From IMG/VR virus record IMGVR_UViG_3300047443_000092, positions 1 to 38,320 of that record: a DNA stretch of 38,320 nucleotides; one strand, 5' to 3'. The notes under the pieces are model-generated. The model was not told the DNA's origin and did no database searches. It saw only the letters and a list, made by a program, of their open reading frames with translations. Of the stretch, positions 1,228 to 35,472 are shown piece by piece; within the stretch, counting starts at the first letter, position 1, and each line of letters starts with the position of its first letter. The position numbers and the translations under genes are program-made. The DNA comes from a virus.

Positions 1228-1405
1228 CGGTGATGTTCCTTTCCTTGAGCTGGTTGAAAATGGCTTGTGTCTGTTCGGCCTGACCTTCGGCCTTGCCGAC
1301 CGCGACACCCTTCAGGTAGACGCCGCCGATCGCCGCCATGATCGCGAGAACGATGACGATCGGGATCCAGTTATCCTTGAGGAAGAGACCGATCACAGCG
1401 CCCAT
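1148..1405 (-). CDS. Inner-membrane anchored protein, probable i-spanin (Rz-like)
   Basis: The 85-residue product starts at the ATG at 1405, which shares its A with the endolysin stop (TGATG), so translation is likely coupled. A membrane segment spans about residues 13-31. A short helical region follows (GKAEGQAEQTQAIFNQLKER), and then a segment, MSDPELCRAINGVW, that resembles the C-terminal motif (MSD..LC..L.G) seen in small alphaproteobacterial phage lysis proteins. It is short for an i-spanin, but the partner lipoprotein overlaps its 3' end, which supports the assignment. A holin role cannot be excluded. Confidence 0.72.
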   Translation of the reverse strand: MGAVIGLFLKDNWIPIVIVLAIMAAIGGVYLKGVAVGKAEGQAEQTQAIFNQLKERNITDEKVQSMSDPELCRAINGVWRDEGCH

Positions 1406-2481
1406 CAACCTTGCTCCACTGTGCTGGTCGACTTCCACCAGCCGTAGAGCGCGTAGCTGGTCAGACCGACGCCGATGATGGCGGCGGCGGCCAACAGCAG
1501 CTGTGAGGCAACGTCGGCGGCCTGGAAGCCGGTTCCGGTCATCTGGGCGGCGGCATCGGAGATCTGTCCGCGCATGGTTGCCAGCAGTGCCACGGGCGCC
1601 ATGCCCTTTGCGGCGTTCTGGACGGCCGGCACGGCGCTGAAGGACATTGCCCCCGGCCGCTCCGTCGCCGTCACCTGGTAGGCCTTCAGGGCGGCTTGCG
1701 TCTGAGGTCCGGCAACGCCGTCGACCGTCAGGCCCTTGACCTGCTGAAGCGCCTTGATGCTGTCGCGGGTGGCCGGGCCGTAATCGCCGTCGACCTTGAG
1801 CGTGTAGCCGGCACGCACCAGCAGCGTCTGCAGCTCGCGGACGCCAGCGCCGGAGGATCCCATGCGCAGCATGCCGGTGGCCGGCGAGGGCGCCACAGCG
1901 CCGCCATAGGCCGCGAAGGCCTTCGCCATCTTGGTATCGTAGGCGTTGACCTTGTAGCTCGGCCCGTTGTAACCGCGCGCAAAGCCGGCCCAGTCCTGCC
2001 GCTCGATTTCGTCGAGCAGCCCGTTGCGCTCGATGAAGCGCACCATGACCTCGACCTGGTTGCCGAGACCGCCGCAGACGAACAGACGGAAAGCCTCGGC
2101 CGAGGCGAAGCCCAGCACCTTCCAATGCACGCCCATAACCTGGCCGACACCCCAACTGAGGGATGAGATCGCCGCGTCGCGATCGATGTCGCACATCGCC
2201 GAGAACATCCGGTAGCGGTCTTCCTGCAATTTCGGGTTCTTCACCCCGCCGACAACGGGGGAGGCCAGGCCGGCCTTGCGCGCCGCCGCCTGCTTTGCCG
2301 CCGGAACCAGCTTGTCGAAATAATGCCCCTCGATCCGGATCAGCGGCATGTCGACGCCCTGGATCCTGGTCGAGACGACGCCGCCGCTCTCGGTATCCAC
2401 CACGGCGCAGAGTGCTGCGGCCGGGATCTGGCGGGAAACGGCGATCGCGGCGATCGCGGAAATGGTGGCTGGGTTGAACAT
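1405..2481 (-). CDS. Endolysin: N-acetylmuramidase with peptidoglycan-binding domain and C-terminal membrane segment
   Basis: The product is 358 residues. Residues 1-195 match the N-acetylmuramidase family known as DUF3380/PF11860, with DTESGG (Glu31 as likely catalytic acid), IRIEGHYFDKL, SWGVGQVMG (109-117) and WAGFARGYNGPSY (164-176). Residues about 205-267 form a PG_binding_1 type domain (VRELQTLL...VDGDYGPAT...VDGVAGPQT). Residues about 327-349 are a hydrophobic segment ending in WW, followed by a short tail. The enzyme cleaves the glycan backbone of peptidoglycan during lysis. No signal peptide is seen. The C-terminal hydrophobic anchor is unusual and could hold the enzyme at the membrane until a holin acts. 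It lies at the head of the spanin genes. Confidence 0.9.
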   Translation of the reverse strand: MFNPATISAIAAIAVSRQIPAAALCAVVDTESGGVVSTRIQGVDMPLIRIEGHYFDKLVPAAKQAAARKAGLASPVVGGVKNPKLQEDRYRMFSAMCDIDRDAAISSLSWGVGQVMGVHWKVLGFASAEAFRLFVCGGLGNQVEVMVRFIERNGLLDEIERQDWAGFARGYNGPSYKVNAYDTKMAKAFAAYGGAVAPSPATGMLRMGSSGAGVRELQTLLVRAGYTLKVDGDYGPATRDSIKALQQVKGLTVDGVAGPQTQAALKAYQVTATERPGAMSFSAVPAVQNAAKGMAPVALLATMRGQISDAAAQMTGTGFQAADVASQLLLAAAAIIGVGLTSYALYGWWKSTSTVEQG

Positions 2482-3014: not shown

Positions 3015-5291
3015 TTAGCCGGTCTTCACCCTTGCGAAACACGCAACTTGCATGGTGATACCCGCTGCGGCTGCGACGACAACTCGAAATGCTCCGATGA
3101 TTTGTGACGACGACACAGCGGACACCATGAGGCCGGAAATTTGCAGATTTCCATCCAGAGTGCCACGGACCAAGTTTAGATTGACATCGGCAAGGCTCGG
3201 AGTGAATGCCAGACTATGATTGAAAGTAAAAGTTTTTAGCCCGGTAGTGGAAACGTCGATCGACGCTGACAGCACCAGATGCTGTTCCGTACGAAGGCCG
3301 CTGACGTTGCTGATCGTCGCTATGCCATCAACGTCATTAACGTTCGTGCCGTTGCCCGTGCAAGATCCACCGATGATCCGGATCGCCGTCGAGCCGGTGC
3401 GAATGTCATAACCGATCCCGGTATTGTTTCGCACGTCACAGCCCATGAAGCTGACTTCGTCGACGCTGTCGACGATGATGCCAGCCTGTGTGTTGTTTCT
3501 GGAAACCAATCCTACATAGGTATTGGTGTCGGCCTCGAGACCGGCGGCAGCATCCTGCCAAAGACGGAAGCCGGCATTATTGGCCTCCGCAATGCAGTTC
3601 GAAATACGCACATCCGGCTCGCTGATCGAGAAGCCGTCGCCGCCGATGCCCTGAGCCTTTCCGAATGCTATTTGCGCATAGCGGGTGATGGCACGCACGC
3701 CTTGCGTGTTGGCGATGTTGGTGCCCGTGACCTTGAAATCTTTCAGCGTCGAGACCTGATAGGGCACTTCGCCGGCAGTGCCGACCTGCAGGCGTATGCC
3801 GACCGTCGCCATAGGCCCGAAGCCTTTGACATGAATGTTGGTCGCCGTAACACCAGAACGAAGATCAAGCCCGGCCTGCCCCGTCAGCAAGCCAGTTGCG
3901 AGACCGAAGTTTTCGATATCGATCTCATCCACCACATTGCCATGCCCGGTGGCGGTATCATCCTTCCAATCGATCGCATCCGCTCCGGTATTGTAGCACT
4001 TCACCCGCCGAATAGAGCAGTTGATCAACGCGTCGCGCTGCATGCCGATCGCATAATACTGGCAATCGTGAATATACATGTCGTGCAGATGCACGCGGGA
4101 GCAGCCAGAGCTGACGGTGATGCCGGACCAGTGGTTTTCGTCGTCGCCTGGCAACGGCACGTTGTCACGATTTCCATCGATCTCGATATCACTGATGATG
4201 ACGTCTTTGACCGTGATGATCGTTTCTACACGCTGTCCGACCTGAATAAGATCAGCGGTCTCGCCATCGGCGAGCTTCAGGATCGTGCCGCCGGATCCGC
4301 GCAGACGCACATGGTCATTCATGATGGCGATGGCGCGCATATTTGCCCAACTGCCGGCGCCGGGATTGGTATTCCTGCAGAGCGCCGTTCCCTGGCCGAG
4401 CAGTACCGTTCCACCGCCTCGATAGGCGATATAGCTCAAAGCCGCATTGATCGGGGGTGCGCAGTCCGTGAACCCGTTGAGTTTGGCGCCGATGCTTTCG
4501 GCCCGAACGGTCGAGCCGGCGGGCTCCCACCAGGCGCCGTCGGCGGATTGCCATTTCATGTCGTGAGGAGGCTCGCTTGCCACCCAGCTCCAGACCTCGA
4601 TGCCGCCATCGCCGGCCTGGTCGTAGCCGGCAGTGACGACGCTGCGATATGTGGGAGGGAAGTGCACCAGCTTTGCCCCGCCAAGCGTGTCGACATAGGC
4701 GGTGCTGACCGAGTGATTGGCGGCGATCAGCGCTCTCAGCGCATTGTCGCCGGCGATGCGATCAAGCACCTCCTGATCGACGCGGCCACGCAATCCATTG
4801 TAGGTCTCGGCGCCATTTGCGAGGCCAAGGCCGTCGGTCCGCCAGATAAGAGGCTTGCCAGGATCGGGAAACGGGATCGGTAGAAGGTTGTTGCCGCCGT
4901 AAGCGACCTTCAGCGACCGGTCGATATCACGCTGCTGCTCCTGCTGAATGATGCGATTGCGATCGAATTCATCGTCCGTCAGCCTGGAGCTGAAGCGACC
5001 GTCGCGCACGATGGACGAAAGGCGGTCGAGGATCGCGCGGCCAAGCACGCCGATGACATCCCCGGCAGAACGGCCTGTCGCAAAATTTACCGCTCCACCT
5101 GTGGGGTCTTCAGCGCCTGCGATGTTATAGAGGGACGCATCGATTTCCACCCATTGCGAGGTCTGCAGCAACATGACCGCAACGTCGTCTTCTTGCTGAA
5201 AAGGGAATGGAATTGCGAACTGCGTCTGTCCGGCGCTGGCCGTATACTGACGAAAGCGACTATCAGGCTCGATCGGCAGGACTACGCTCAT
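3015..5291 (-). CDS. Tail spike / tail fibre protein with T7 gp17-like N-terminus and pectate-lyase-type beta-helix
   Basis: The product is 758 residues. About residues 1-135 resemble the virion-binding N-terminal domain of T7-type tail fibres (FRQYTASAGQTQFAIPFPF, YNIAGA, TGRSAGDVIGVLGRAILDRLSSIVRDGRFSS). From about residue 265 the sequence follows the pectate-lyase-3/right-handed beta-helix pattern (SIGAKLNGFTDCAPPINAAL...RGGGTVLLGQG). Many short repeats with N, G and small hydrophobics run to about 650, followed by a C-terminal beta domain. Such spikes bind and often cleave surface polysaccharide, so this is the likely host-range protein. Its ribosome binding site lies inside a hairpin (5295-5327). 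Confidence 0.9.
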   Translation of the reverse strand: MSVVLPIEPDSRFRQYTASAGQTQFAIPFPFQQEDDVAVMLLQTSQWVEIDASLYNIAGAEDPTGGAVNFATGRSAGDVIGVLGRAILDRLSSIVRDGRFSSRLTDDEFDRNRIIQQEQQRDIDRSLKVAYGGNNLLPIPFPDPGKPLIWRTDGLGLANGAETYNGLRGRVDQEVLDRIAGDNALRALIAANHSVSTAYVDTLGGAKLVHFPPTYRSVVTAGYDQAGDGGIEVWSWVASEPPHDMKWQSADGAWWEPAGSTVRAESIGAKLNGFTDCAPPINAALSYIAYRGGGTVLLGQGTALCRNTNPGAGSWANMRAIAIMNDHVRLRGSGGTILKLADGETADLIQVGQRVETIITVKDVIISDIEIDGNRDNVPLPGDDENHWSGITVSSGCSRVHLHDMYIHDCQYYAIGMQRDALINCSIRRVKCYNTGADAIDWKDDTATGHGNVVDEIDIENFGLATGLLTGQAGLDLRSGVTATNIHVKGFGPMATVGIRLQVGTAGEVPYQVSTLKDFKVTGTNIANTQGVRAITRYAQIAFGKAQGIGGDGFSISEPDVRISNCIAEANNAGFRLWQDAAAGLEADTNTYVGLVSRNNTQAGIIVDSVDEVSFMGCDVRNNTGIGYDIRTGSTAIRIIGGSCTGNGTNVNDVDGIATISNVSGLRTEQHLVLSASIDVSTTGLKTFTFNHSLAFTPSLADVNLNLVRGTLDGNLQISGLMVSAVSSSQIIGAFRVVVAAAAGITMQVACFARVKTG

Positions 5292-5353: not shown

Positions 5354-8300
5354 TCATGGATGGAGTACTGGGCGGGGCTTTTTCTTCCGCTTCTCCCCGT
5401 CGAGGGCCAGGCCGCCCGCCTGTACCTGCGCGACCAGGTCGCCGGCAAAGGTATCGGACCCATCGGCAAGCGCGCGGTCGCGCAGCTCCGGCCACGTTTC
5501 GTTCACCGCGTCCGACGTCCAGACCTTGTTTTGCGCGAAGGCGGAGCCAAGCCGCTCGGCAAGCCTCGGGTTGATCGCCTCGAGCTCGCGGTAATAGCCA
5601 TCCTCGGGGATCTCGGTACGCTGCGCCCAGCCGGCAACGCCGGTTTCTTTCAGCGCATTCCTGGCCATCGCCATGGCAAGCGAAGAAAACACATCGTCGG
5701 CGGCAGTGCGCTCGGCCGAGGAGATCTGGAGAGGATTGCCATCGTCGTCGGTTAGCCTGCCCATGGCCATTTCGCGCCGCACCGTACCGATCGCCTGGAC
5801 TGCGCCACGGGCGCGGATCATCGGATGCAGCCGGCGAGCGTCGGCCGGCAGGCTCGAGACGGCGACATAGGCCTTGGCGATCGGCTCGAGCGTTGCATAG
5901 TAGTCCGCGGCGCCGGCACTGTCGCCGGCCTCCATCATGGCTTTCCAGCTCTTCACCTTGCCCTCGAGCGTGCCTTCGCGCTGGCCGACCATATCCCAGA
6001 ACATGGTGACGCTCTGGGCGCCGCGGCTGGCATCCTTGATGAAGCGGCGCGTGATCGGGGCGTCGTCCCAGGCAAAGCCAGGCGCGTCCGGCTGCGCCAG
6101 GTCGTAGAGCGCCAAGGCGTTTCTGCCCCAGGAGCCGAGATGCGCCGTGATCAGATGATCGATCACGACAGGCGGCTCGTTGAAGATACGACCGAGTTGC
6201 TTGGAAAGGGCGCTGGTGCGGGCCGTGTACTGCAGCCAGGGCTCGAGGCCCTGCAGCTGATCGGGCACGATCGGCGCACCGGTGAAGAGATCCTTGTTGG
6301 CCTTGAGCTCGAAATAGCTCTTGATCGCCGGATTGCCCTCGATCAGCGACGGCGGGGTGACGGTGAGGAAAATGCTGTCCCGCCAACGCCCCATGGCGGC
6401 GGGATCCTTCTTCGCCCAGCTATCGAAGAGCGCTTCGCCGAGATTGATGGCAATCGCCATTTCGAAGGGCTTCGGGATCGCGACCCATTTTTCGCCGTCC
6501 TTCACCATCCAATGCGTCGCCTTGGTGGTCTCGGAAACCTCGTCGTAATCCTCATGCTGGCTTTGCAGCGCATAGAGCGAGACGGAACCAGCGACGAGGA
6601 CGCCGAGCCGCGCCCAGGTCTTGACAGCAAGCGCCATGGCGGCGGTATCTTCAGGACCGGCCGCGACGCCGAGCATCTTGCGGGCAAGTGGCGCGATCAT
6701 ATGACGAGAGGCCTTGTCGAGGCCCTGCAGGCTGGCGTTCAGGAAGGGGATGACACGCGACAGCGCCGCCATGCCGGATCCGCGCCGATCGAAGTCGAGA
6801 TAGTCGCGCGCCTGCCAGGACGCTTCCAGGGTCGCCTCGTAGTCCGACAGGCCACGCGCCTTCGCTTCATCCTTGAAGGTACGAAACAGGCCGAGCCTGG
6901 TCGCAGTTTCGGCGATCTCGGCTGTCTCGAGCAATCCGCGAAAAGACGTGAGGCGATTGGCGAACCACCCCTTACGCTTGAGAGCGGCGAGATCGCGCTT
7001 TGCCATCGCCTCCGAAAGAGAGGCCGTTTCGGCGCCACCGGAAATTCCGAACATGCGGGCATAGGACTTCGCGACGTCACTGCCAATGATGTCGTCCGTG
7101 GCGCCCTGCAGGGTGGCTGCAACTCGACGAAACGGCTTGCCGTAAAGCACGGTCGCCATGAACTGGTCGCGTACGAAATTGGCGCCGATGAATTCCGGAG
7201 ACAGGGTAATGCCGGCACGCAACACGCGGGCAGGGATCGAGACCAGGTCGAGCCAGAAGTTCTTTTCGCCGCGGCCCATCATGGTGATGGCCTTGTACAT
7301 GTCCTGGCCGAATTTCCCATCAGCCAGGCGTAGCGCCTTCAACTGGCCGCCATCGCGGAAGAAGACGATCGGCTCGCCCTTCTCGTTGATCATCGCCGGC
7401 CGGAAGATCGCGGCCTTCTCCGAACCAACGGCGCTTTCCACCGCGTCGCGCAGCACGGTGATATCGGGAACCGAAAGACCCGCGTTCCTCGCCGCCGTTT
7501 CGACCGCCTCGAGCGGATCGATCATGCTCGCCCGCAGTTCCTTGGTCGGAATGATCTCGGCGATCGCGCCGGATCCCGGGCCGGCGTTGAGGGAAAGGCG
7601 ATGCAGCGCCTTGACGACATCGTTGCGGGCGATCGTCATATTGGTTTCATAGGCATCGGCCGCCATGCTCTCGAGCGGATTGATGACGTCGCGCTTCGAT
7701 CCCTTGAAGCGCTTGACCAGGCCGCCTTTCATGGAGCCGCCACGGTGCTTCTGAGCCGTGATCTTCATGTCCGCCTCAGAGGTGGAGAAATCGCGAAGGC
7801 CAGGCACATAGTCCTTGATCAACAGGCCGCGATCATAGGTCTCCTGGTCGATCAGGCCGGCGTCGAGCTTCTTCTTCCAGAGCGCCCGGCTGAACTCATG
7901 CGCCTTGTCGGCCGCGCTGACAAAGGCGGGAAATTCCTTCTCCAGCTCGGCGATGTTAGCGTGGTGATCGGCTTCCGTCAGCTTGTCGGGCGGATTGGGG
8001 ATATCGCCGGCGCGATAGCGCTCCCATTCGCCGACGGCGCGGCGCGACCAGAGATAGGCGCCGAATTGGCCGACCCGCTCCTCATCCCATCCGGAGAGCG
8101 CGTTCGGCTTGCCGGTTGCCTCGACGATCGCATCGCGAAGCGAAGGGCTTTCTGGGTGCATGCCGCGATAAGGCGCGACGCCATACATGACATCCATATG
8201 GCCGGCCGAATAGGCTCCCCGAGACATGCGGGCGAGCTTGTAGGGATTGCCCGACGTGTTGAGCTCGAGGTGCTGCCCCTTATTCTCGTAATGCAGATCT

Positions 8301-10357
8301 TTGAGGTAGGAGACCGCCCGGTTGATCGGATTGAGGTCGTCGAAACCGAAGGTGTATATCCTTTGCAAAACATCGGATATCGTCCCGCCGAAGCCGCTTT
8401 TCTTCAGCTCCTTGGCGGCGGATTTGATCCAGCCATCCTTTTTAGCGGACACGATCGTCGATCGCACGGCAACCGAAGACGGCGCGGAAAGGAAGGCGTT
8501 CCAGGCGGCAGATGCCTCGTCGATCGCCTTTGCCATCTCCGGCGCCTTGGTCGTCAGGACCTGCTCGAAGTCGGCGGCCAGCGCCGGCATGTTCTTGCGC
8601 AGATAATCCCGGTTCGTCACCCAGAGGCGGAAGAATTCCGCGAAGCCCTCGAAATCACGGCCCTTGCTCGGATCGTAGTCCAGGGCTGAAAGCGCCTTCG
8701 AATTGGTCTTGATGAAGGCTTTGACATCGGGGACATGCGCATCGAGATGATGGCCATATTCATGGGTGAGCGTGTCGAAGTCGTCGAGCGATCGAACGCG
8801 CACGACGCTGTCTTTGGTGTCGAAGGTCCCGAGAACGCGTTTGCCGCCAGAAATCCGGCCCTGCCTGGTCGCGGTAATGTTCAATGCCTTGGCGAGCGCG
8901 TCGGCCGTCTCCCGCACACGCTCGATCCGTCCGGAGGCCGCTTGCGCCGGCGCAGCATTGGCAACGTTGCCCCTCGATCGCTGAGCGTTCAGGCCGGCGG
9001 TCGGCTGCGCCATCATGAAATCGCCAACCTGCTTTTCCGATTTTGTCCGGGTCGAACGGACAGTGTTAACGATTTCCAGATCCTCCGCCCGAGGCTTTCC
9101 AGCCTTCACCGCCTTCTTGAGGTCGCGGATTTCAGCCTGCCTCTCCTTAATGAGGCCGGGGCGCTCGTTTTCTGTGAAGCCGGCATGACCGAACTGATCG
9201 TAGTCAGCGTCAAAGCGTGAATGGCCTATGAAAGCGCCGCTTTTGCCGGTCGATGTTAAGACCGGAGATCCGTCAAAGCCGGTCTCGTCGGTCGGTTTCA
9301 GCGAACGCAGCTCCTTGAGCTCGATCTCCGCCGCGCGTAAGCGATCGCTTGTCGCGAGCATTGCCTCCGTTTCCGGAGATGCCACAGCTCTGAGGATACT
9401 TAATTCATCAGCAGGGATTTTTCCGCCGTCGAAATCGACAGCCGCCAGGCGTTCACGCGCGATATCCGGCGTGATCTCGGCCGCGGCTGCCGCCGGAGCG
9501 GGCTGCTCGAGTCCGCGTGCCTTTGCAGCTTCGGCGGAAAGGGTTTCTCCGATCGTCGGCGATGGCGGCGGCGCAGCCTGGTCGGCGATCGGCGCCGACG
9601 TTGCGGTCGGAGCATTTTCGGGCGCTGTCGTTTCCGGGCGAACGTTCGGCACTTCCTCCGGCGCCATGACGATCGGCGCCTGCGGATCCGGGGCAGGTTT
9701 GATCTGGGCGGCGACATCGACGGTATTAGCGATCGGCGCCGGTGCATTGTCGTCGAGCTCGTCGAATGGATTGAAAGAGGTGCGCTCTCCCGGTGCCGCG
9801 CGGACGCCACGGCCTTCACCGCCCAGCAGATCGCCGACAACCTTGCCGCCGGCGCCACCGAGGCCGCCGACGCCGAAGCCGAGCAGGACGCTAGCCGCAT
9901 ATTGCTCAGGATTAAATGTTTGCTGTGTGCCGCCGGTGATATTGATCCCCTGGATCGCCGCATCCGCGACGGCATTCGACGCGGCGCTATCGACGGCGCC
10001 GGAAAAGATCCTGGCCCATAGGCCAGTGACCCCTATTTTCCCCGCGACCAGGATTTTTTCGCCAAGGCCGACCGGCACGAAATTTTCAGGGCTGGCAGCG
10101 GTGCCGGCGATCTGGCCGGAAAGCGCCGCGCCGCCATCGAGGAGCCCCTGCCATGCCGGGAAGGAGTCATAGCGCCGCTCGAAGCGAGCGCGATCGTCCC
10201 GGCGCAGTGGAGATGAATTATCCTTGATCGCGCCGGCGATTGTGTTCTGTCGGTTACCCGCCTCGAAGTTGAGCTGAAAGCGCTCCCAGAGACCAGGCGC
10301 CGGCGCCGATTGGATGAAGGAGCCGTCGTCGTCCAGGTCGTCGAAGGGATTTGCCAT
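5354..10357 (-). CDS. Giant internal virion / DNA-ejection protein (1667 residues) with zincin motif
   Basis: Length and position, between a lysozyme-bearing virion protein and the tail spike, match the largest ejection protein of T7-like phages (gp16 counterpart). Residues 270-300 are low-complexity Pro/Ala. HEYGHH at 532-537, with a downstream EGFAEFF (Glu574), forms a plausible zinc-metallopeptidase site. The C-terminal third (roughly 1100-1500) has the look of LPD38-type large polyvalent phage proteins, with LVAGSVSLYALQ and W/F-rich segments that might insert in membranes. The motif NPFDDLDD at residues 3-10 recurs as NPFDELDD at 196-203. The start has GGAG six to seven bases upstream. 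The role inferred is ejection into the host envelope ahead of the DNA; peptidase activity is a prediction. Confidence 0.85.
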   Translation of the reverse strand: MANPFDDLDDDGSFIQSAPAPGLWERFQLNFEAGNRQNTIAGAIKDNSSPLRRDDRARFERRYDSFPAWQGLLDGGAALSGQIAGTAASPENFVPVGLGEKILVAGKIGVTGLWARIFSGAVDSAASNAVADAAIQGINITGGTQQTFNPEQYAASVLLGFGVGGLGGAGGKVVGDLLGGEGRGVRAAPGERTSFNPFDELDDNAPAPIANTVDVAAQIKPAPDPQAPIVMAPEEVPNVRPETTAPENAPTATSAPIADQAAPPPSPTIGETLSAEAAKARGLEQPAPAAAAAEITPDIARERLAAVDFDGGKIPADELSILRAVASPETEAMLATSDRLRAAEIELKELRSLKPTDETGFDGSPVLTSTGKSGAFIGHSRFDADYDQFGHAGFTENERPGLIKERQAEIRDLKKAVKAGKPRAEDLEIVNTVRSTRTKSEKQVGDFMMAQPTAGLNAQRSRGNVANAAPAQAASGRIERVRETADALAKALNITATRQGRISGGKRVLGTFDTKDSVVRVRSLDDFDTLTHEYGHHLDAHVPDVKAFIKTNSKALSALDYDPSKGRDFEGFAEFFRLWVTNRDYLRKNMPALAADFEQVLTTKAPEMAKAIDEASAAWNAFLSAPSSVAVRSTIVSAKKDGWIKSAAKELKKSGFGGTISDVLQRIYTFGFDDLNPINRAVSYLKDLHYENKGQHLELNTSGNPYKLARMSRGAYSAGHMDVMYGVAPYRGMHPESPSLRDAIVEATGKPNALSGWDEERVGQFGAYLWSRRAVGEWERYRAGDIPNPPDKLTEADHHANIAELEKEFPAFVSAADKAHEFSRALWKKKLDAGLIDQETYDRGLLIKDYVPGLRDFSTSEADMKITAQKHRGGSMKGGLVKRFKGSKRDVINPLESMAADAYETNMTIARNDVVKALHRLSLNAGPGSGAIAEIIPTKELRASMIDPLEAVETAARNAGLSVPDITVLRDAVESAVGSEKAAIFRPAMINEKGEPIVFFRDGGQLKALRLADGKFGQDMYKAITMMGRGEKNFWLDLVSIPARVLRAGITLSPEFIGANFVRDQFMATVLYGKPFRRVAATLQGATDDIIGSDVAKSYARMFGISGGAETASLSEAMAKRDLAALKRKGWFANRLTSFRGLLETAEIAETATRLGLFRTFKDEAKARGLSDYEATLEASWQARDYLDFDRRGSGMAALSRVIPFLNASLQGLDKASRHMIAPLARKMLGVAAGPEDTAAMALAVKTWARLGVLVAGSVSLYALQSQHEDYDEVSETTKATHWMVKDGEKWVAIPKPFEMAIAINLGEALFDSWAKKDPAAMGRWRDSIFLTVTPPSLIEGNPAIKSYFELKANKDLFTGAPIVPDQLQGLEPWLQYTARTSALSKQLGRIFNEPPVVIDHLITAHLGSWGRNALALYDLAQPDAPGFAWDDAPITRRFIKDASRGAQSVTMFWDMVGQREGTLEGKVKSWKAMMEAGDSAGAADYYATLEPIAKAYVAVSSLPADARRLHPMIRARGAVQAIGTVRREMAMGRLTDDDGNPLQISSAERTAADDVFSSLAMAMARNALKETGVAGWAQRTEIPEDGYYRELEAINPRLAERLGSAFAQNKVWTSDAVNETWPELRDRALADGSDTFAGDLVAQVQAGGLALDGEKRKKKPRPVLHP

Positions 10358-10413: not shown

Positions 10414-12915
10414 TCAACGCCGCTGTGCCGGCGCAGCGACTGGTGGCCCGAGTACGCGCGAGGAAGCGCCTGGTCCGAACTTTGCATCAAACTGCGATGA
10501 GAGCTGCGGATTTTGCTGCAGGCGCTGCATCTGCAGATAATTCGGGATTGGCCACACATCGGCCATGGTCGCGGACTGACGGGCGGCGCTGGGAACGACC
10601 TGCGTCGGATCCGCAGAAGGGCCGACAGGACCGAAGGTGCGTGGTGTGGTGCTCCCGGAATTGTCTGCAGCCGACGTTTCGTTGATCACCTGCCCCTGCC
10701 GCCGATCGGCGCCCGTTGGTTGCTGGCCGCGCTCGAGGCGTCGGAAATAGCCAGCACCAAGCGTCGCCATATCCTTGCTGATCCCTTGTTCCTGCAGGAC
10801 CTGAGAGAGCACTTTGTCGGCATGAGCCCCATAGGTCGTATTGACCTGCGTCACGAGATCCATCATCGCTTTGGATGCAAGCCCAGGATCCGGCTGCGCG
10901 GAAATAGGTTTCGAGAGCGCGATAGCTTCCGTCTTGGTCAATGGTGCCTGCTCGAAATCGGAGATCCCCAGCGCCTGCTGCGCATGCAGCCGCGTCGTGA
11001 CCAGCGTCTGCATGGAGGAAGGATCCTGCGGATCGGCCGCGGCGGCTGCTTTCTTGACGTCGGGAAACGCCTTGTCGACGACGGCGGCCGGATCCTGTGC
11101 GCGAGCCTTGATGACGGCCGACGCCTGTTTCTGCGCCGCCTCGTAGATCTCGAGATTTTCCGCATAGCCAGGCGTACCAGGCTTTGGCTCGATGGCGGCC
11201 AGGCGTTGTGTGAGATCCTCGGCCGACTGCGTTTCCATGCCGTTGGTGGCATCGTAGACCCGGCCAGCTTTTTCGCGACCGGCCTGCCATTTCGTCAGGC
11301 CGGCGTCACCAAGAAGAGTTTGCACCCGTTCGGCCGTCAGTCCGGATTGTGCCGGGTCGAGACCCTTACCGGTCGTCTGCAGGCTGGTAACGTCGTCGTC
11401 GATCAGCGAGGAGACGCGAACGGCTTCAACCTTGTTTTGCGCCTTCTCATGGTTCTTGCGCTCGAGCGCATCACGGCGCAGCGTGTCCGATATCGCCTTG
11501 ACGCTCGCAAAGGGCAATTGCGCCAGGGGACCCTTGCCGGTTTTCCAATCGTCGAGGATCGCGAGCGAATATTGCTCTTTCTGATCGTCGCTCGGAAGAG
11601 CGTCATAGACGCCCTGGATCCGGCCACGGGCGGCGGTCTCGGCGATATTCTGCTTTGCGGTCTCGCCTTGCGCCGGCGTAATCGTGCCGGCGGCGATCGC
11701 GCCGTCGATCGAGTTCTGGATTGTGCGGACCTGCTTTCCGATGATCTCGTCACCGTTCGGATTGGCCCCCAGCACCTGAGACTGCCGTTCTAGATCAACG
11801 CGCTGCGCATCGAGGCCGGAAGCGTAAGATGCTTCCTGCTCATTACGAATTTGCGTCTGGTGGCGAGCGGCGATGTTCTGTCGATAGGCTTCCGTCCGAT
11901 CGACAAAGGCTTTGTCGAAGGTCTCGCGCATTTGCGGATCCTGGGGGATCGCCTGTGCATACTGGTCGCGGATCTTTTGCGATGCCTGGGTGAAGCCGCC
12001 CGGGTCGTCCTGAAACTGCTGCGCCGCATTGAAGAGGTCGGTCGAAAGTCCGGCCTGCATGCGCCAGGAATAGGCACTGATCGCCGCGTCATCCATGGCA
12101 TCGCCACGGATCGTGCCGTCGCGACGCAATGCCAAAGGTGCCGTTGGTACCACGGGTGCCTGATAGGTATTGGAAGCCGGATCCGCTCCGGGCGAGGACG
12201 GCAGTGCGCCGCCGCGTATGATTGCGGCCTCTCGTTTGCGCCGCCCTGGGTTGGCATCCAATCCTTCTACAGATGCCGCCAATTGTTCGACGTCACCGGT
12301 CTGAGCAGCCTTGACGACTGACGGCGGCAAAGAGCCATAATTATATCCGACGGACGTGACGACTGCCTTGGCGCTGTCGGGCAACGCATCGAAAGCCGGG
12401 CCGAGCTGCTTGCGCACCTGGGCGCCTTCGCGATTGGCGATGCGATAGGAGAGGTCGCGCTCGGCATCGTCCTGGCTGATCTGCATGCCCTGAGTGACCG
12501 GCACGACCTTTCCGTCCGCAGTGACGATCGTATCGGAGCCGTAACCGACACGATAGGCATTCACGTCATGATAAGGCTTGTCGCGAAATCCCTCTTCCTT
12601 CCGGATGAGCGCTTTCGCCTGCTCCTCCCACGGCCCGACGCCGGCAGCACCACCAGCTTGTGCGGCCGCCTGTTGTGCCTGCAAATAGGAAGCACCGGCG
12701 GCCTGGCCCTCGGTAAGACCGGCGAGCTGTCCTTCGCGCTGCGCCGCCCGATCGGCGAGCTTGCCAAGCGTGTCGGACAGGCTGCCGGCGACGCTGGCGA
12801 GCGCCCGCGAGGCCTGCCCGGTATCGACGGCATAGGAAGGGACATCCGTGGAGATCAACGGATCTGCTGCGTAACGAGCGAGATCGCCGGGAGAGCGAGG
12901 CTGACGATTGACCAT
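10414..12915 (-). CDS. Virion-associated lysozyme / ejection protein (833 residues)
   Basis: Residues about 94-240 form a GH24-like lysozyme domain. IRKEEGFRDKPYHDVNAYRVGYGSDT places an acidic pair (Glu107/108), Asp117 and the GYGSDT loop as in T4-type lysozymes, followed by FDALPDSAKAVVTSVGYNYG. The rest is long, Ala/Gln-rich and mostly helical, typical of internal core proteins of podovirus virions. It probably opens the peptidoglycan locally during genome entry, as the transglycosylase domain of T7 gp16 does, rather than acting in lysis. The start codon shares one base with the preceding stop (TAATG). Confidence 0.87.
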   Translation of the reverse strand: MVNRQPRSPGDLARYAADPLISTDVPSYAVDTGQASRALASVAGSLSDTLGKLADRAAQREGQLAGLTEGQAAGASYLQAQQAAAQAGGAAGVGPWEEQAKALIRKEEGFRDKPYHDVNAYRVGYGSDTIVTADGKVVPVTQGMQISQDDAERDLSYRIANREGAQVRKQLGPAFDALPDSAKAVVTSVGYNYGSLPPSVVKAAQTGDVEQLAASVEGLDANPGRRKREAAIIRGGALPSSPGADPASNTYQAPVVPTAPLALRRDGTIRGDAMDDAAISAYSWRMQAGLSTDLFNAAQQFQDDPGGFTQASQKIRDQYAQAIPQDPQMRETFDKAFVDRTEAYRQNIAARHQTQIRNEQEASYASGLDAQRVDLERQSQVLGANPNGDEIIGKQVRTIQNSIDGAIAAGTITPAQGETAKQNIAETAARGRIQGVYDALPSDDQKEQYSLAILDDWKTGKGPLAQLPFASVKAISDTLRRDALERKNHEKAQNKVEAVRVSSLIDDDVTSLQTTGKGLDPAQSGLTAERVQTLLGDAGLTKWQAGREKAGRVYDATNGMETQSAEDLTQRLAAIEPKPGTPGYAENLEIYEAAQKQASAVIKARAQDPAAVVDKAFPDVKKAAAAADPQDPSSMQTLVTTRLHAQQALGISDFEQAPLTKTEAIALSKPISAQPDPGLASKAMMDLVTQVNTTYGAHADKVLSQVLQEQGISKDMATLGAGYFRRLERGQQPTGADRRQGQVINETSAADNSGSTTPRTFGPVGPSADPTQVVPSAARQSATMADVWPIPNYLQMQRLQQNPQLSSQFDAKFGPGASSRVLGPPVAAPAQRR

Positions 12916-13475
12916 TATCCGCGCTCCGCCAAACTGACGCCGTACTGCGCGACCTGGCCGAGCGAGGTGAGAAGCGCGCCACCACGTTGCGAACTCGCCT
13001 GGGCGCGCAGCCCCTGGGCGCGCATCTTGTAGAGCGAACGCTGAAAATCCGTCTGTTGCTGATCGATCGAGATATCCTGCGCTGCCTGTTGCTTCTGTCG
13101 GGCGGCATTGTCGGCGGCAACGCCCTGGGTGAGATCGATGCCGGCAGCGGCATAGGCGACGTCGTTCTGGCCGAGCACGCGCGCGAGTTCCTTGCGCATT
13201 TTGTTTTCGCGCTGCGTGCCGGCGAGTTGCTCTTGTCCAGACTGCAGGTCCGCCTGGTCGGCCTGTTGCTCGGAAGCGCGAGAGGATGCTGCGCCGGCGC
13301 CGATCGTCCCCAGCACGCCGAGAACGGTGGAGACACCCTGCAGCGCCGAAAGAACGCCGGACCCGGCCGATGCGACCGTGCCTGCTGTCGTCGCTGCTGT
13401 GCTAGCGGCGGCCGCGCCTGTCGTCAGACCAGCTCCGCCAAAAAGACTGCCGAGCGCCGAAATCGCCAGCTCCAT
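12915..13475 (-). CDS. Internal virion protein, T7 gp14-like by position
   Basis: The 186-residue product starts at the ATG at 13475, chosen because AGGAGG lies six bases upstream. The N-terminus (about residues 1-65) is rich in Gly, Ala, Thr and Ser with hydrophobic runs (LGSLFGGAGL, VLSALQGVSTVLGVLGTIGAGAA) that could span a membrane. A Gln/Arg/Glu-rich helical region follows (about 70-165). T7 gp14, which forms the outer-membrane part of the ejection channel, has a similar layout and the same gene place, between the nozzle gene and the lysozyme-like core protein. Sequence identity was not testable here. Confidence 0.78.
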   Translation of the reverse strand: MELAISALGSLFGGAGLTTGAAAASTAATTAGTVASAGSGVLSALQGVSTVLGVLGTIGAGAASSRASEQQADQADLQSGQEQLAGTQRENKMRKELARVLGQNDVAYAAAGIDLTQGVAADNAARQKQQAAQDISIDQQQTDFQRSLYKMRAQGLRAQASSQRGGALLTSLGQVAQYGVSLAERG

Positions 13476-13485
13476 ATTTTGCCTC

Positions 13486-15516
13486 CTATAATGCAGCCTC
13501 GACGGTAATTGAGCGCACATTCAGTCTACCGGGCCGGATCTGGGAGATCGTCACATAGGGCGCATCGGAATAGCCGCGCAGATTTCGGATCTTGATCGTG
13601 CCCGTCACACCCTGGTCGAGCTCGGCGACATCGGCGAGCAACCCATAGCGATAGAGGTCGTAATCCTGCACCGCATTGCCATTGACCGAGATCGCAAGGC
13701 TGGTTGTATCGAGGATCGAGATCTGGACGCTGTGAATTCTCGCCTTCCGCTTCAGCACCGTATTCGGGCCGATGTCTCGCGGCGGCGGCAGCGTCGAAAC
13801 GATCGGCGGTTTCCATGTGCCGACAGTGGCGGCGGAGACGGCGACCGACAGCGTCACGGTGCCACCAGCAACTGTGAAAGGGCCGAAGACGTTGCGATCG
13901 CCGATGACCCAGACTTGGCGGCCATTGAAGCGCTCGAGGCCGGTAATGGTCTTCTGGGCCGGCGCAAAGGCGAAATCCTGCGCCTCGTCGAGAAGAAGAC
14001 CGGCTTCCAGCCGCTCGAAGAAACGGCCGCCGCTGCGTTGCGTGATGAAAGACATCTCGTTGCGGCCGTTCTTGCCGGTCGCAATGAAGGTGCCGTTCGT
14101 CGTCAGGCGCGAATAGGCCGTTACCTCCTGCTCTCGCAGTAGGGTGACAAGTCGCGCCTGGCCGTCGTCGCGGATGATTGAATGCACGTTTCCGTCCATC
14201 GAGGCATTGGCGCGCCGCACGGCCATGTCGGACACGCCATCGACCAGGTGCGAGGCGAGCAGGGAAATGTCTGTCGCGACGAAATTGCCCTCGACATCGG
14301 TATAGCGGAGCTCGCCGATCGTCGCGCCGTTCTTGTGGCACCAGATCGCCGCACCCTCGTTTTCGACGACCGGAACGCCACGCTTGATACCATTGCGCGA
14401 CGCCTGGACGTGGTTCGGTGCGTCGGTTTTCGAGATCGTTCTCTCGGCGATCCAATATTCCGCCTGGCTGGTAAAAATCAGAAGATTGAGCGAAGAGACG
14501 ATCGCCTCGATCTGCTCGCCACCGGCAACGTCCATCGGCACAACGAAAGGCCCATTCGCCTCGGTAAAGCGGTCGTCATAGTTGAAATAGTCGGCCGATT
14601 TCGATGGCATCCAGGCGTTGGGCAAAGACTTAAAGCCGCCTACGATCAGGCGTTGCGCATAGAAGCAGCCGCATTGCGGCCAGCCTCGCTCATTGGAAAT
14701 CAGGGGTTCACCAGGAGAGACGCCGGCGGTCTGCTTGACGGCAACGATGGCAGCATCGGCCTTGTTGATGATGGTACCGGACACGGCCCAGCCGTCGCCC
14801 TCGTTACCATCGCCGGAAAACTCGATTGTCACGATACGGCTCGAAGGCGATGCGACATTGATCCCGGGCTGAACATTCGGGAGATCGCCGATCGCGGCGT
14901 CGATCGCAGTTACCAGCGTCGGCATATCGCTGTTGTAGGTGATCGACTCCGTCGTCTGCCCTGAGACCGTCAACGTGAAGACAGTGTCAGCGGTCGACAG
15001 GCCGACGAATTCCAACCGCCAGACGGCAGGGACGCCGTTGGTGTAGACGCCGCCGTAATCATAGTTTGGGATGCTCTCGAATGGCAGGTCGTCGACAACA
15101 AAGCCGCCATCCGTGAGCCTGATCCGCTTGCTACGCAGATCCTGGTGGAATAGCAGCAGCGTATCCAGGCGTTGCGCGTAGGTCATATAGGGCAGATAGG
15201 CGGACATGCCGGCGACGGTCATCGTGGCGACGAGCGATGTCGCACCCCAGGCGGTGCAGTTGTCGCCGGCGAGAACCAGGTCGTAGGAAGAGCCATTGGA
15301 GGCGTCGAAGGGCACAAGCCGCGAAGCATTGGCGGCGAGCGCGCCTATATTGCGCAAGCCGTCACGCTGACGGAATCCACCTTGCGGCGCGATCACGATG
15401 TTCTCGGCATATTTCAGGCCGGTCGCAAAATACTTGAGAGTGGTTCTGTCCTCGAGGAGCGGGTCGAGCTCGCCGGCGGTGAAGGCAGACTGCATGCGTC
15501 CTGGGCGTCCGACCAT
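13486..15516 (-). CDS. Tail tubular protein B / nozzle protein (T7 gp12-like)
   Basis: The product is 676 residues. The ATG at 15516 overlaps the upstream stop (TGATG) and has GGAG six bases before it; the frame is open from a TTG at 15528, but that start has less support. The N-terminus (GELDPLL..RTTLKYFATGLKYAENIVIAPQGGFRQRDGLRNI) has the R-D-G-L motif and layout of nozzle proteins that extend the short tail. The body is beta-rich, as expected for a propeller-type tail component. It sits directly after the gp11-like gene, as in T7-like phages. Confidence 0.83.
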   Translation of the reverse strand: MVGRPGRMQSAFTAGELDPLLEDRTTLKYFATGLKYAENIVIAPQGGFRQRDGLRNIGALAANASRLVPFDASNGSSYDLVLAGDNCTAWGATSLVATMTVAGMSAYLPYMTYAQRLDTLLLFHQDLRSKRIRLTDGGFVVDDLPFESIPNYDYGGVYTNGVPAVWRLEFVGLSTADTVFTLTVSGQTTESITYNSDMPTLVTAIDAAIGDLPNVQPGINVASPSSRIVTIEFSGDGNEGDGWAVSGTIINKADAAIVAVKQTAGVSPGEPLISNERGWPQCGCFYAQRLIVGGFKSLPNAWMPSKSADYFNYDDRFTEANGPFVVPMDVAGGEQIEAIVSSLNLLIFTSQAEYWIAERTISKTDAPNHVQASRNGIKRGVPVVENEGAAIWCHKNGATIGELRYTDVEGNFVATDISLLASHLVDGVSDMAVRRANASMDGNVHSIIRDDGQARLVTLLREQEVTAYSRLTTNGTFIATGKNGRNEMSFITQRSGGRFFERLEAGLLLDEAQDFAFAPAQKTITGLERFNGRQVWVIGDRNVFGPFTVAGGTVTLSVAVSAATVGTWKPPIVSTLPPPRDIGPNTVLKRKARIHSVQISILDTTSLAISVNGNAVQDYDLYRYGLLADVAELDQGVTGTIKIRNLRGYSDAPYVTISQIRPGRLNVRSITVEAAL

Positions 15517-16145
15517 CAGGATCTCCAAGCCTGCTCGAGGGGATTGTGGTAGACCGCCATCCGTCGAGGCGGATTGGCGAAGGCATCCTCGAACAGGGCA
15601 GCGCGCATCTGGCCACCCCGGAAATTGTCGCTGGGAACGCCATAGGCTTCCTGCAGGAAATCCGCCTTGGTGTTCCGATCGCTCGCGATCGCATAGACGA
15701 GGTGGCCGCCGAGCGCGGTAATGGTCGCCATGCGGAACGTCGCGGTCCAGCGGTGCGGATCCGGCCGAAACTTGACCATGGCGAAAAGCGGATCCGCGTC
15801 GGAATGCACCTGGCCGTTGGTCAGAATGAAATCGGTGAACGGCTGGTCTGGGCAGCGGATATCGTCGGCCAGGAAAACCGGAAGACCGGTGTACGGCCCC
15901 GGAATATCGAACACGAATTTATAGCCCGTCAGCGGCGTAGCGCCGTCGAGTTTCGACAGTTGCCGCATTTCACGGGCAAACGCGAAACCGGACGGCTGCA
16001 GACCGAGATTGAAATCGACGATGTCCTCATAAATGAGTGACGCGCTCTGGCCACCCCCCAAGTCCTCCTCGAGGCTTTCCACCGGTTCTTCGCCGATACG
16101 GGCGCAAGCGGCGTTGATGACGTCAAGTGCAGTGAGTAGGACCAT
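15516..16145 (-). CDS. Tail tubular protein A (T7 gp11-like)
   Basis: The product is 209 residues. LTALDVINAACARIGEEPVESLEED at the N-terminus, a helical segment, and a later LVYAIASDRNTKADFLQEAY region match the general pattern of head-completion/gatekeeper tail proteins that form a ring below the portal. GGAG lies seven bases before the start. The gene is first after a strong terminator (16157-16198), so it may have its own promoter or depend on readthrough. Confidence 0.83.
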   Translation of the reverse strand: MVLLTALDVINAACARIGEEPVESLEEDLGGGQSASLIYEDIVDFNLGLQPSGFAFAREMRQLSKLDGATPLTGYKFVFDIPGPYTGLPVFLADDIRCPDQPFTDFILTNGQVHSDADPLFAMVKFRPDPHRWTATFRMATITALGGHLVYAIASDRNTKADFLQEAYGVPSDNFRGGQMRAALFEDAFANPPRRMAVYHNPLEQAWRS

Positions 16146-16545: not shown

Positions 16546-17418
16546 TCAGACGACCACGATCGCCGAGTTGCTGGAGGTGGTAAAACGCTTGATGCCCCGG
16601 CCTTCCTGCAGCGGCGAGGCAGCGCCCTTGCAGGTCATGTTGATCGTCCACCAGTTTTCGTAGTTGTCCCACTGGGTGATGACCGAGAGGTCGGTGTTGT
16701 TGCACCAGCCCATCGCGCTCTTGTGCCAGATGAACAGATCCTGCTTATTGGCGGCCGGCACGGGGTAGAGATCCAGTGCATCTTCCTCGACGAACAGGAA
16801 CCAGTTGACGCCGTTCCAGAAGCGGGTGTCGGTCGCCTTCACGAACGGCAAATCATTGCTACCGACGTGGTCGGAGCTGTTGACGATCTTGTTCGCAAGC
16901 AGCTGGTTCCACTGCAGGGAGGGCAAGCCGCAATAGACCTGGCCATCCCACTTGACCTTGTCGTTCTGCAGCATGCTGCAGAGCGTGAGGGCGTTGGCTG
17001 CGCTGAACGCGGCCGCCGAGAAGTCGACGTCGGCGACCGTTTTCACGGCGGCCGCCTGGGCGTAGATTTCGATATCGGTTGCCCGGCCGAGCGAATTGGC
17101 GCCGGATTCGTAGACGACTTCCTTTTCATCCACGCTCATGCGATCGACGTCGTATTCTTCGATGACGTCGAATGCCTTCCAGGTGGCGAGCGGCACTTCG
17201 AACTTCTTGCGCTCGCCGTTTCCGGGCTGATTGCGTTCGCGGCGCTCGATCTTCTTGGCCTTGGTCTTGCCGGCGAGCCAGAAGACGCCCTTTTCGTTGT
17301 TCTCGATACGCATGGCCTGCGTCACGGTCGGGCGCAAGCGGTTGCCTTCCTGCTGATAGATGGCCATCGCACGGTTGGCGTATTGCGTCGTGTTCCAGTT
17401 GGGAGAGTTCTGCGTCAT
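16546..17418 (-). CDS. Major capsid protein
   Basis: The 290-residue product starts with GGAG about six bases upstream. Position after the scaffold gene, length, and the pattern of an N-terminal helix (TTQYANRAMAIYQQEGNRLRPTV) followed by VFWLAGKTKAK, a KKFEVPLATWKAFDVIEEYDVDRM segment and a Trp-rich C-terminal beta region fit the HK97-fold coat proteins of alphaproteobacterial podoviruses. WNGVNWFLFVEEDALDLYP and LFIWHKSAMGW are late-sheet type segments. No fused protease or decoration domain is visible. Confidence 0.85.
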   Translation of the reverse strand: MTQNSPNWNTTQYANRAMAIYQQEGNRLRPTVTQAMRIENNEKGVFWLAGKTKAKKIERRERNQPGNGERKKFEVPLATWKAFDVIEEYDVDRMSVDEKEVVYESGANSLGRATDIEIYAQAAAVKTVADVDFSAAAFSAANALTLCSMLQNDKVKWDGQVYCGLPSLQWNQLLANKIVNSSDHVGSNDLPFVKATDTRFWNGVNWFLFVEEDALDLYPVPAANKQDLFIWHKSAMGWCNNTDLSVITQWDNYENWWTINMTCKGAASPLQEGRGIKRFTTSSNSAIVVV

Positions 17419-26014: not shown

Positions 26015-26035
26015 CAAAAATATTTTTCCCAGGAG

Positions 26036-30291: not shown

Positions 30292-30608
30292 CGGGCACTC
30301 TCCCGAGCCTGCTCCATCAGTACGGAGCGATAGCGGTGTTCGAGCTCGAGGAGCTCCGCCTTCGCGACACCTAGCGCTACCGGCCAGAGATCCGCCAGGC
30401 GCTGACTGATGATCTTCTCTAGGATCCCGGCCGCAATGTAGGCGCCATCCACGCTACCCGCGAAAACCGGCTCGACAGTAATTCGTGGCGGGTCGGAGCC
30501 AATCACATCGGCATGTTGCTCGATCCAGGCAATTGCCTTCGCCAAGTGATCAGCTTGATGGCCGTCGGCACGCATGGTGTCGGCCATGTTCCGCAGAGGG
30601 TGCGTCAT
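30288..30608 (-). CDS. Small early protein, unknown
   Basis: The 106-residue protein is mostly helical (RADGHQADHLAKAIAWIEQHADVIG; KAELLELEHRYRSVLMEQARE). Both ends overlap neighbouring genes by four bases. I see no metal site, membrane segment or HTH. Confidence 0.68.
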   Translation of the reverse strand: MTHPLRNMADTMRADGHQADHLAKAIAWIEQHADVIGSDPPRITVEPVFAGSVDGAYIAAGILEKIISQRLADLWPVALGVAKAELLELEHRYRSVLMEQARESAR

Positions 30609-35324: not shown

Positions 35325-35416
35325 ATCTCGAACCCGGTGCCTGCACTCCTCACCCCTCTAGCCAGTGCGGGCCCTCAAGGCCGGATCCTCCGCCCCCAAT
35401 CGGGATCCGGCAAACC

Positions 35417-35454
35417 CGGCCCGGCGGTCTCTGTTTCGCGTGACCGCCGGGCCG
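35417..35454 (+). terminator. Intrinsic terminator directly upstream of the integrase gene
   Basis: A 13-bp GC-rich perfect stem (arms 35417-35429 and 35442-35454) with a 12-base loop is followed by AATTTT. It ends about eight bases before the integrase ribosome binding site (AGGAGG). Transcription from the excisionase-like operon would largely stop here, separating the two functions unless readthrough occurs. Confidence 0.85.
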
Positions 35455-35472
35455 AATTTTCTAGGAGGCACC

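What the first reader, a model, noticed from the sequence alone, without database searches (positions are those of the whole stretch)
8747..8764. Zinc-metallopeptidase motif inside a 1667-residue ejection protein
HEYGHH with a downstream EGFAEFF (Glu at residue 574) fits a gluzincin-like active site. Internal ejection proteins of known T7-like phages carry peptidoglycan lytic domains, and here the lysozyme sits in a separate protein. A protease delivered into the host envelope or cytoplasm could process virion proteins or inactivate a host defence.
Basis: partly seen in the sequence, partly recalled or inferred. Interest (0 to 1): 0.62.

Follow-up and report, generated by a model that had tools for sequence, protein, structure and literature searches.

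The report
Zinc protease inside phage polyvalent protein
A very large protein that this bacterial virus probably carries into its host contains a well-conserved zinc-dependent protein-cutting domain of a kind already described in such phage proteins; what it cuts is unknown, with its own flexible linker the best guess.

Summary
The motif is real. HEYGHH lies on the minus strand (8747-8764), residues 532-537 of a 1667-aa protein (P0001, 5354-10357), with EGFAEFF at 570-576. Residues 472-640 give a confident AlphaFold2 model (pLDDT 93.8): helix, three strands, an HExxH helix, then a Glu-bearing helix. Its best PDB matches are the M34-like peptidases (lethal factor, PPEP-1; Z 8.7 and 7.9). Relatives fished with the C-terminal 1027 aa alone keep HExxH and the downstream Glu in 12 of 12. 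P0001 carries Pfam LPD38, so this is a zincin-like metallopeptidase of a phage "polyvalent protein", a class described in 2017. The gene sits in the podoviral internal-protein slot, next to a separate lysozyme protein. Best reading: an active peptidase acting in cis, probably in the Pro/Ala-rich linker just upstream. The domain is co-inherited with the C-terminal core and diverges at the same rate, which fits self-processing better than a fast-changing anti-defence effector. No cleavage has been shown. Ordinary in kind, but a clean test case for the unsolved role of such domains, including the one in phage N4's virion RNA polymerase.

The parts
5354..10357 (-). P0001, 1667-aa LPD38 polyvalent protein in the podoviral internal/ejection-protein slot
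   Evidence: ORF and translation; Pfam LPD38 2.5e-41 at residues 1268-1435; PHROG 9854 1.4e-43
8438..8944 (-). zincin-like metallopeptidase domain, residues 472-640
   Evidence: AlphaFold2 pLDDT 93.8, pTM 0.89; Foldseek/VIA matches to M34-like peptidases; profile match to solved zincins
8747..8764 (-). HEYGHH, residues 532-537: predicted zinc ligands His532 and His536, general base Glu533
   Evidence: HExxH kept in 12 of 12 loci found with the C-terminal part alone
8630..8650 (-). EGFAEFF, residues 570-576: predicted third zinc ligand Glu570 (8648-8650); Glu574 (8636-8638) one helix turn on
   Evidence: Glu570 53 of 53, Glu574 52 of 53 in A2; Asn at 574 in L132 and L133; coordinates
8675..8677 (-). 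Tyr561, near-invariant, candidate transition-state tyrosine
   Evidence: Tyr in 49 of 53, 6-11 residues before the Glu in 48 of those 49, 25 in one
8798..8800 (-). Arg520, invariant, on the third strand just before the HExxH helix
   Evidence: 53 of 53 in A2; strand 47-50 of the model
8948..9787 (-). Pro/Ala-rich variable linker, residues 191-470: proposed region of self-cleavage
   Evidence: 27% Ala+Pro; 7-26% identity to 14 relatives against 37-74% for the zincin; alignment
9818..10300 (-). conserved N-terminal domain, residues 20-180, with a glycine-rich hydrophobic stretch 157-175
   Evidence: 37-63% identity to 14 relatives and hydropathy; alignment
5378..8437 (-). helical C-terminal core, residues 641-1660, including LPD38 (6053-6556)
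   Evidence: AlphaFold2 pLDDT 77.4, pTM 0.69; LPD38; relatives with and without a zincin
10414..12915 (-). P0002, neighbouring internal protein with lysozyme domain
   Evidence: PHROG 7 and 3572 endolysin, 3.3e-13
12915..13520 (-). P0003, internal virion protein
   Evidence: PHROG 418 internal virion protein 1.4e-06

Best explanation
Residues 472-640 of P0001 are an active zinc metallopeptidase (gluzincin type: His532, His536 and Glu570 bind zinc, Glu533 activates water, Tyr561 may stabilise the transition state) built into a phage polyvalent/ejection protein. It most likely acts in cis, or between copies of the same protein, cutting the flexible Pro/Ala-rich linker (191-470) that separates the N-terminal domain from the peptidase plus helical LPD38 core, either before packaging or after ejection. 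Shown here by computation: motif, predicted fold, conservation, LPD38 membership, gene order. Inferred: zinc binding, catalysis, presence in the virion, the cut site and its timing.
For: Predicted fold at pLDDT 93.8 with the element order described for polyvalent-protein peptidases (against PMC5512222 passages). Best PDB matches are catalytically active M34-like peptidases (profile search). Catalytic residues kept in 12 of 12 loci found without using the domain. The domain sits next to a long, variable, Pro/Ala-rich linker. Domain and core distances correlate at r = 0.94 over 16 sequences with equal mean identity, 31% and 29%, as expected for a part that works on its own protein. Precedent: phage P1 DdrB is processed before packaging and its own C-terminal peptidase domain is the proposed agent (PMC5512222, passages).
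Against: No cleavage data exist for this protein in anything I saw. The N4 virion RNA polymerase, which has an HExxH zincin domain before a large helical C-terminal domain, is packaged unprocessed (PMC5512222; structure preprint). The domain is dispensable: 5 of 9 core-bearing phage proteins that I translated have no HExxH (one of the 5 seen only in part). No conserved cut site could be named in the linker. Foldseek gave no PDB match at E <= 0.001, and the VIA Z values of 8-9 are middling by the tool's own note.
Confidence: 0.5

Rival explanations
1. The domain is an injected effector: after ejection it cuts a host envelope or cytoplasmic protein, for instance part of a defence system.
For: Its closest solved folds are secreted or delivered proteases that act on other proteins; zincin peptidases are known effectors in conflict systems (PMC5512222); the gene order suggests delivery with the DNA.
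Against: It is inherited with the core and diverges at the same rate, unlike a quickly swapped weapon; no target is known; PADLOC gave no match, although that library holds defence proteins rather than their targets.
Confidence: 0.2
2. The peptidase matures other virion proteins in trans during assembly, as a head protease does.
For: Proteolytic maturation is common in phage heads (PMC9024508); no separate head protease was recognised among the ORFs I scanned.
Against: Only 24 ORFs were scanned, so a protease may have been missed; relatives without the domain exist; peptidases built into ejected proteins are proposed mainly to cut their own chain (PMC5512222).
Confidence: 0.12
3. The zinc site is structural or vestigial; the domain helps encapsidation or folding, as proposed for the N4 polymerase region.
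For: In N4 the region with the zincin is needed for encapsidation and the protein stays uncut (PMC5512222); C1 contacts the polymerase domain (PMC12633501, section 6).
Against: The general-base Glu533, not needed for a structural zinc, is kept in 12 of 12 loci found without the domain, and HExxH in 13 of 13 N4-type proteins examined.
Confidence: 0.15

Closest known systems
Zincin-like MPTase domains of polyvalent proteins (Iyer et al. 2017, PMC5512222)
   Same: HExxH helix, Glu on the next helix, N-terminal helix and three strands; embedded in a large phage protein with an LPD domain; Asp three residues after HExxH (Asp539)
   Different: The widely distributed phage clade has a His at the end of strand 2; the window has no His at positions 510-515 (Phe at 512; His in 5 of 53 there). 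No Pfam model reaches its cut-off on the domain
M34-like peptidases: lethal factor catalytic domain, PPEP-1/Zmp1
   Same: Predicted fold aligned over about 120-130 residues at Z 7.5-8.7 for most rows; HExxH ... Tyr ... Glu order (their residue roles partly recalled)
   Different: Mostly 13-18% identity; a phage ejection-type protein, not a secreted toxin or protease; Tyr-Glu spacing mostly 9-11, and 7 in 8 of 53
Phage N4 virion RNA polymerase C-terminal region (C1 zincin + C2)
   Same: Membrane-type N-terminal part, linker, zincin, then a large helical C-terminal domain; ejected protein of a podovirus
   Different: No RNA polymerase here; profile match to C1 covers only 31 columns around HExxH and none is found to C2
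VvAW1 / X14 / BA3 / FGH large proteins (annotated DNA methylase or hypothetical)
   Same: Same zincin upstream of the same core, 26-28% identity in the aligned domain
   Different: 2.6-3.6 kaa proteins, about 1,100-2,100 aa longer upstream of the motif
T7 gp16-type ejection proteins
   Same: Position in the gene order
   Different: No sequence match to any solved phage ejection protein; the lytic domain is in the neighbouring protein

Membership tests
Zincin-like metallopeptidase of polyvalent proteins | HExxH with two His ligands and a catalytic Glu | tested here: met
   Residues 532-536; kept in 12 of 12 loci found with the C-terminal part alone
Zincin-like metallopeptidase of polyvalent proteins | Third ligand Glu on the second C-terminal helix | tested here: met
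   Glu570 in helix 97-110 of the model, 53 of 53 in A2; rows of A2 were fished partly with this motif
Zincin-like metallopeptidase of polyvalent proteins | Core fold: N-terminal helix, three strands, two helices | tested here: met
   Predicted model H10-20 E25-28 E39-42 E47-50 H56-70 ... H97-110; prediction, not a solved structure
Zincin-like metallopeptidase of polyvalent proteins | Linked in one chain to other polyvalent-protein domains | tested here: met
   LPD38 in the same chain, 2.5e-41; LPD38 is reported only from phage-type polyvalent proteins (PMC5512222)
Widely distributed phage-type clade of these MPTases | Conserved His at the end of strand 2 | tested here: not met
   Window Phe512, no His at 510-515; His in 5 of 53 at position 512
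Pfam MPTase-PolyVal (PF18818) | Match above the curated cut-off | tested here: not met
   No match for the window protein or domain; 2 of 53 relatives at best E 0.0043
Pfam ATLF / M34-like peptidases | Sequence-family match | tested here: inconclusive
   No match for the window; 8 of 53 relatives at E <= 1, best 6.9e-5; A2 profile against solved chains, lethal factor 4.6e-4
LPD38 proteins | Pfam PF18857 above cut-off | tested here: met
   142.3 bits, cut-off 27
T7 gp16-type ejection protein | Gene order after tail proteins and lysozyme/internal proteins | tested here: met
   PHROG 394, 376 (tail), 418 (internal virion), endolysin protein, then P0001, then tail-fibre protein
T7 gp16-type ejection protein | Detectable homology to solved ejection proteins | tested here: inconclusive
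   A3 profile: two hits, E 0.13 or worse, none a phage protein; fold search of the core gave nothing at E <= 0.001
Ejection protein | Present in the virion and delivered to the host | not testable with these tools
   An LPD38 protein of phage JC1 was found in virions by mass spectrometry (PMC9144972, passages); nothing on this phage
Active metallopeptidase | Zinc-dependent peptide cleavage | not testable with these tools
   Needs the purified domain and a Glu533 mutant

The most novel reading that the evidence does not exclude
The peptidase is switched on by ejection: once the chain has been threaded into the host envelope, it cuts its own Pro/Ala linker (or that of its neighbours), freeing the membrane-type N-terminal domain from the helical core, so that the transient DNA-delivery channel is remodelled or taken apart by a built-in protease. 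The zincin of N4-type virion RNA polymerases would do the same.
Probability: 0.15. Interest if true: 0.72.

Novelty: new member of a known kind. Interest (0 to 1): 0.36.

Why it matters
Zincin peptidases are the commonest domain in polyvalent proteins that phages and plasmids bring into cells (PMC5512222, passages), yet in the passages I read none has a shown substrate. Here the domain is compact, confidently modelled, and found in chromosomal loci of ordinary marine bacteria (Stappia, Labrenzia). One catalytic-residue mutant would therefore tell self-processing, virion maturation and host attack apart, and would bear on the unexplained zincin in the N4 virion RNA polymerase. The separation of Glu570 from Glu574 says which residue to mutate.

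Tried and rejected
Glu574 as zinc ligand: rejected, since L028 (EGFANLF), L132 (EIVANAF) and L133 (ELIANLY) have Asn there and keep the first Glu.

Loss of the motif in a close relative: L121 first seemed to lack it. My script had taken the longest frame, which was the wrong one; with the right frame the motif is there.

Homology of the C-terminal core to N4 C2: not found. hhalign probability 0.1%, no better than the reversed control at 0.4%. The zincin against N4 C1 gave 88.5%, but over 31 columns only.

Fold of the core: no PDB match at E <= 0.001 and, with the whole model, one chain with Z >= 5; the tool warns that domains of a 1020-residue model can be missed. T7 gp16 was not among the rows shown; that excludes nothing.

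N-terminal motif NPFDxLDD as the P1 DarB capsid-targeting sequence: no such motif at the N-termini of P1 DarB, DdrB, DarA, DdrA or Ulx. The looser pattern PF..[FLMI][DE] is not enriched, 12 seen against 10.9 expected; only strict NPFD is, 10 against 0.9 in 93 frames. Both counts cover full-length frames of relatives that are partly near-identical.

P1 DdrB as a close relative of this zincin: not supported, E 1.3 with the A2 profile.

Query P0001 in viral contigs found nothing; the domain alignment A1 did. NCBIfam and PADLOC gave nothing useful.

Papers: no cleavage or virion data on VvAW1 or X14 in the passages searched. No paper in the library holds both 'large polyvalent protein' and 'ejection protein'. 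A review of ejection proteins has none of the words protease, peptidase, zinc, polyvalent, cleaved. Most subscription-journal papers are not in the library.

Full report
What was checked. The 18 bases at 8747-8764 encode HEYGHH on the minus strand. They are residues 532-537 of the 1667-aa ORF 5354-10357 (-), with EGFAEFF at residues 570-576. From the composition of the protein about 0.018 HExxH are expected.

Context. PHROG matches on the minus strand, in the order of transcription, are: a connector (18787-20376), a major head protein (16546-17418), two tail proteins (15516-16145 and 13486-15528), an internal virion protein (12915-13520), the lysozyme-bearing P0002, P0001, and a tail-fibre-type protein (3015-5291). 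An integrase (35365-36717 +) points to a temperate phage. The window is a virus record of 38,320 bases with no named source. That P0001 is an ejection protein rests on this gene order and on one published precedent: an LPD38 protein of podovirus JC1 was found in virions by mass spectrometry with 51 unique peptides (PMC9144972, passages and tables seen).

Families. P0001 matches Pfam LPD38 at 2.5e-41 over residues 1268-1435 and nothing else at E below 0.09. No Pfam, NCBIfam or PADLOC model recognises the motif region in the window protein above its cut-off. [quoted passage not shown]

Relatives of the domain. In annotated phages the 181-aa region matches VvAW1 (3e-12), X14, FGH, BA3 and others, down to 4e-6 for BA3. 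The motif is kept in all four: HEMAH or HELAH followed by EGFAEF. Alignment A1 drew 80 loci from viral contigs and 9 from genome contigs. The closest, at 57-73% domain identity, include genome loci of Stappia and Labrenzia. Of 93 long frames in the loci held then that scored with the A1 profile, some of them duplicates of one another, 92 have HExxH in the domain; L076 has HEVIGH, the HExxxH form. Alignment A2 holds the window plus 52 representatives of those 92. L076 was left out, so the invariance of HExxH in A2 is by construction; and the loci were fished with stretches containing [IFK]EGFAEF or the residues up to HE, so the conservation of EGFAEF is biased as well.

Test without that bias. 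I searched whole genomes with the C-terminal 1027 aa alone. In the order of the Stappia genome 10 of 397 genomes matched, with 12 places; in the class 4 of 385, with 4 places. Leaving out two loci already known from the motif search (L106, which occurs in both lists, and L112) and one C-terminal fragment (L130), 12 loci are new: L121-L129 and L131-L133. HExxH is present in 12 of 12, and a Glu at the 570 position in 12 of 12. Ten have EGFAEF or EGFAEW; L132 has EIVANAF and L133 ELIANLY. For L132 and L133 the identity with P0001 is about 25% over the aligned part of the core, and the domain itself is barely or not recognised by the A2 profile, so these two assignments rest on position and pattern.

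Which Glu. Glu570 is 53 of 53 and Glu574 52 of 53 in A2. Asn replaces Glu574 in L028, L132 and L133 while the first Glu stays. In gluzincins the first Glu of such a helix is the ligand (recalled). Glu570 is therefore the likely third ligand. Gly510 and Arg520 are also 53 of 53, and Tyr561 is 49 of 53. In PPEP-1 a Tyr and the HExxH Glu are the residues mutated in the substrate-bound entries (E143A/Y178F in the entry titles); that Tyr561 has this role is inference.

Fold. AlphaFold2 on A2 gives pLDDT 93.8 and pTM 0.89, with helix 10-20, strands 25-28, 39-42 and 47-50, HExxH helix 56-70, and Glu helix 97-110. This is the element order published for these peptidases (PMC5512222). Foldseek against the PDB has lethal-factor entries on top, best E 0.015, with none at E <= 0.001. 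VIA-align gives Z 8.7 (3.5 A, 126 residues) for lethal factor and 7.9 (3.7 A, 121 residues) for PPEP-1. The tool notes that Z under 8 can be a common arrangement, but the rows shown are nearly all M34-like zincins. The A2 profile against PDB sequences has lethal factor first at 4.6e-4 and PPEP-1 at 0.027. Among viral models 4 match at E <= 0.001; two carry descriptions, a 'Type I restriction enzyme Methylase' and an LPD-domain protein.

Anatomy of the protein. Against 14 near relatives, residues 20-180 are 37-63% identical, the linker 191-470 only 7-26%, and the zincin (478-600) 37-74%. The linker is 27% Ala+Pro. The C-terminal core (641-1660) is predicted mostly helical, pLDDT 77.4 and pTM 0.69, with no significant PDB match. 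The core occurs with and without the peptidase: of nine core-bearing phage proteins translated, L002-L005 have HExxH and L007-L011 do not; L011 was seen only in part, about 2,700 residues. Within the group that has it, pairwise distances of domain and core correlate at r = 0.94 over 16 sequences, 0 of 2000 permutations reaching it, with mean identities of 31% and 29%. The 16 are those of the 26 A3 rows whose locus is also in A2.

Function. The 2017 analysis proposes self-processing, before packaging (P1 DdrB) or after delivery, and also attack on host proteins; it notes that N4 vRNAP is packaged uncut (PMC5512222). The anatomy here, a conserved peptidase beside a variable Pro/Ala-rich linker and inherited with its core at the same rate, fits cutting of its own chain best. 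I put this at about one half, with host attack, maturation of other virion proteins and a structural role as rivals. Zinc binding, catalysis, cut site and timing are all inferred.

Comparison with N4. N4 gp50 has a membrane-type N-terminal part, linkers, an HExxH domain (C1) and a large helical C2 (PMC12633501, section 6 read). The layout is parallel. By profile comparison only 31 columns around HExxH match C1 (probability 88.5%), and C2 does not match the core (0.1%, reversed control 0.4%). HExxH is present in 13 of 13 N4-type proteins I aligned.

Verdict. It is a new member of a known kind.

Noticed in passing
10328-10351 and 9749-9772 (-), residues 3-10 and 196-203 of P0001: The N-terminal octapeptide NPFDDLDD recurs as NPFDELDD just after the N-terminal domain. 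In L012, L013, L014, L019 and L029 an internal copy also resembles that protein's own N-terminus. It may be a docking or packaging signal; strict NPFD is seen 10 times against 0.9 expected in 93 frames, some near-identical.
   Followed up: partly
9509-9553 (-), residues 269-283 of P0001: A short conserved island (IGETLSAEAAKARGL) in the otherwise unconserved linker, similar in several relatives; candidate docking or cut site.
   Followed up: no
L132 and L133, residues about 332 and 328 of the frames: HExxH with E..AN instead of E..AE: the second Glu is replaced by Asn while the first stays.
   Followed up: partly
L076, frame starting at 6135: The domain has HEVIGH, the HExxxH form described for another set of polyvalent-protein peptidases.
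   Followed up: no
L135/L136 (phage N4) and L137-L148: N4-type virion RNA polymerases show a similar order, HExxH domain then a large helical C-terminal domain, without detectable homology of the latter to the LPD38 core.
   Followed up: yes
1405-2481 (-): Protein matching PHROG endolysin families, two of them filed under head and packaging (best 2.1e-73).
   Followed up: no
30605-31408 (-), 35365-36717 (+): ParB-like protein and an integrase, pointing to a temperate podovirus.
   Followed up: no
24143-26017 and 27013-28089 (-): Two separate primase-like genes.
   Followed up: no
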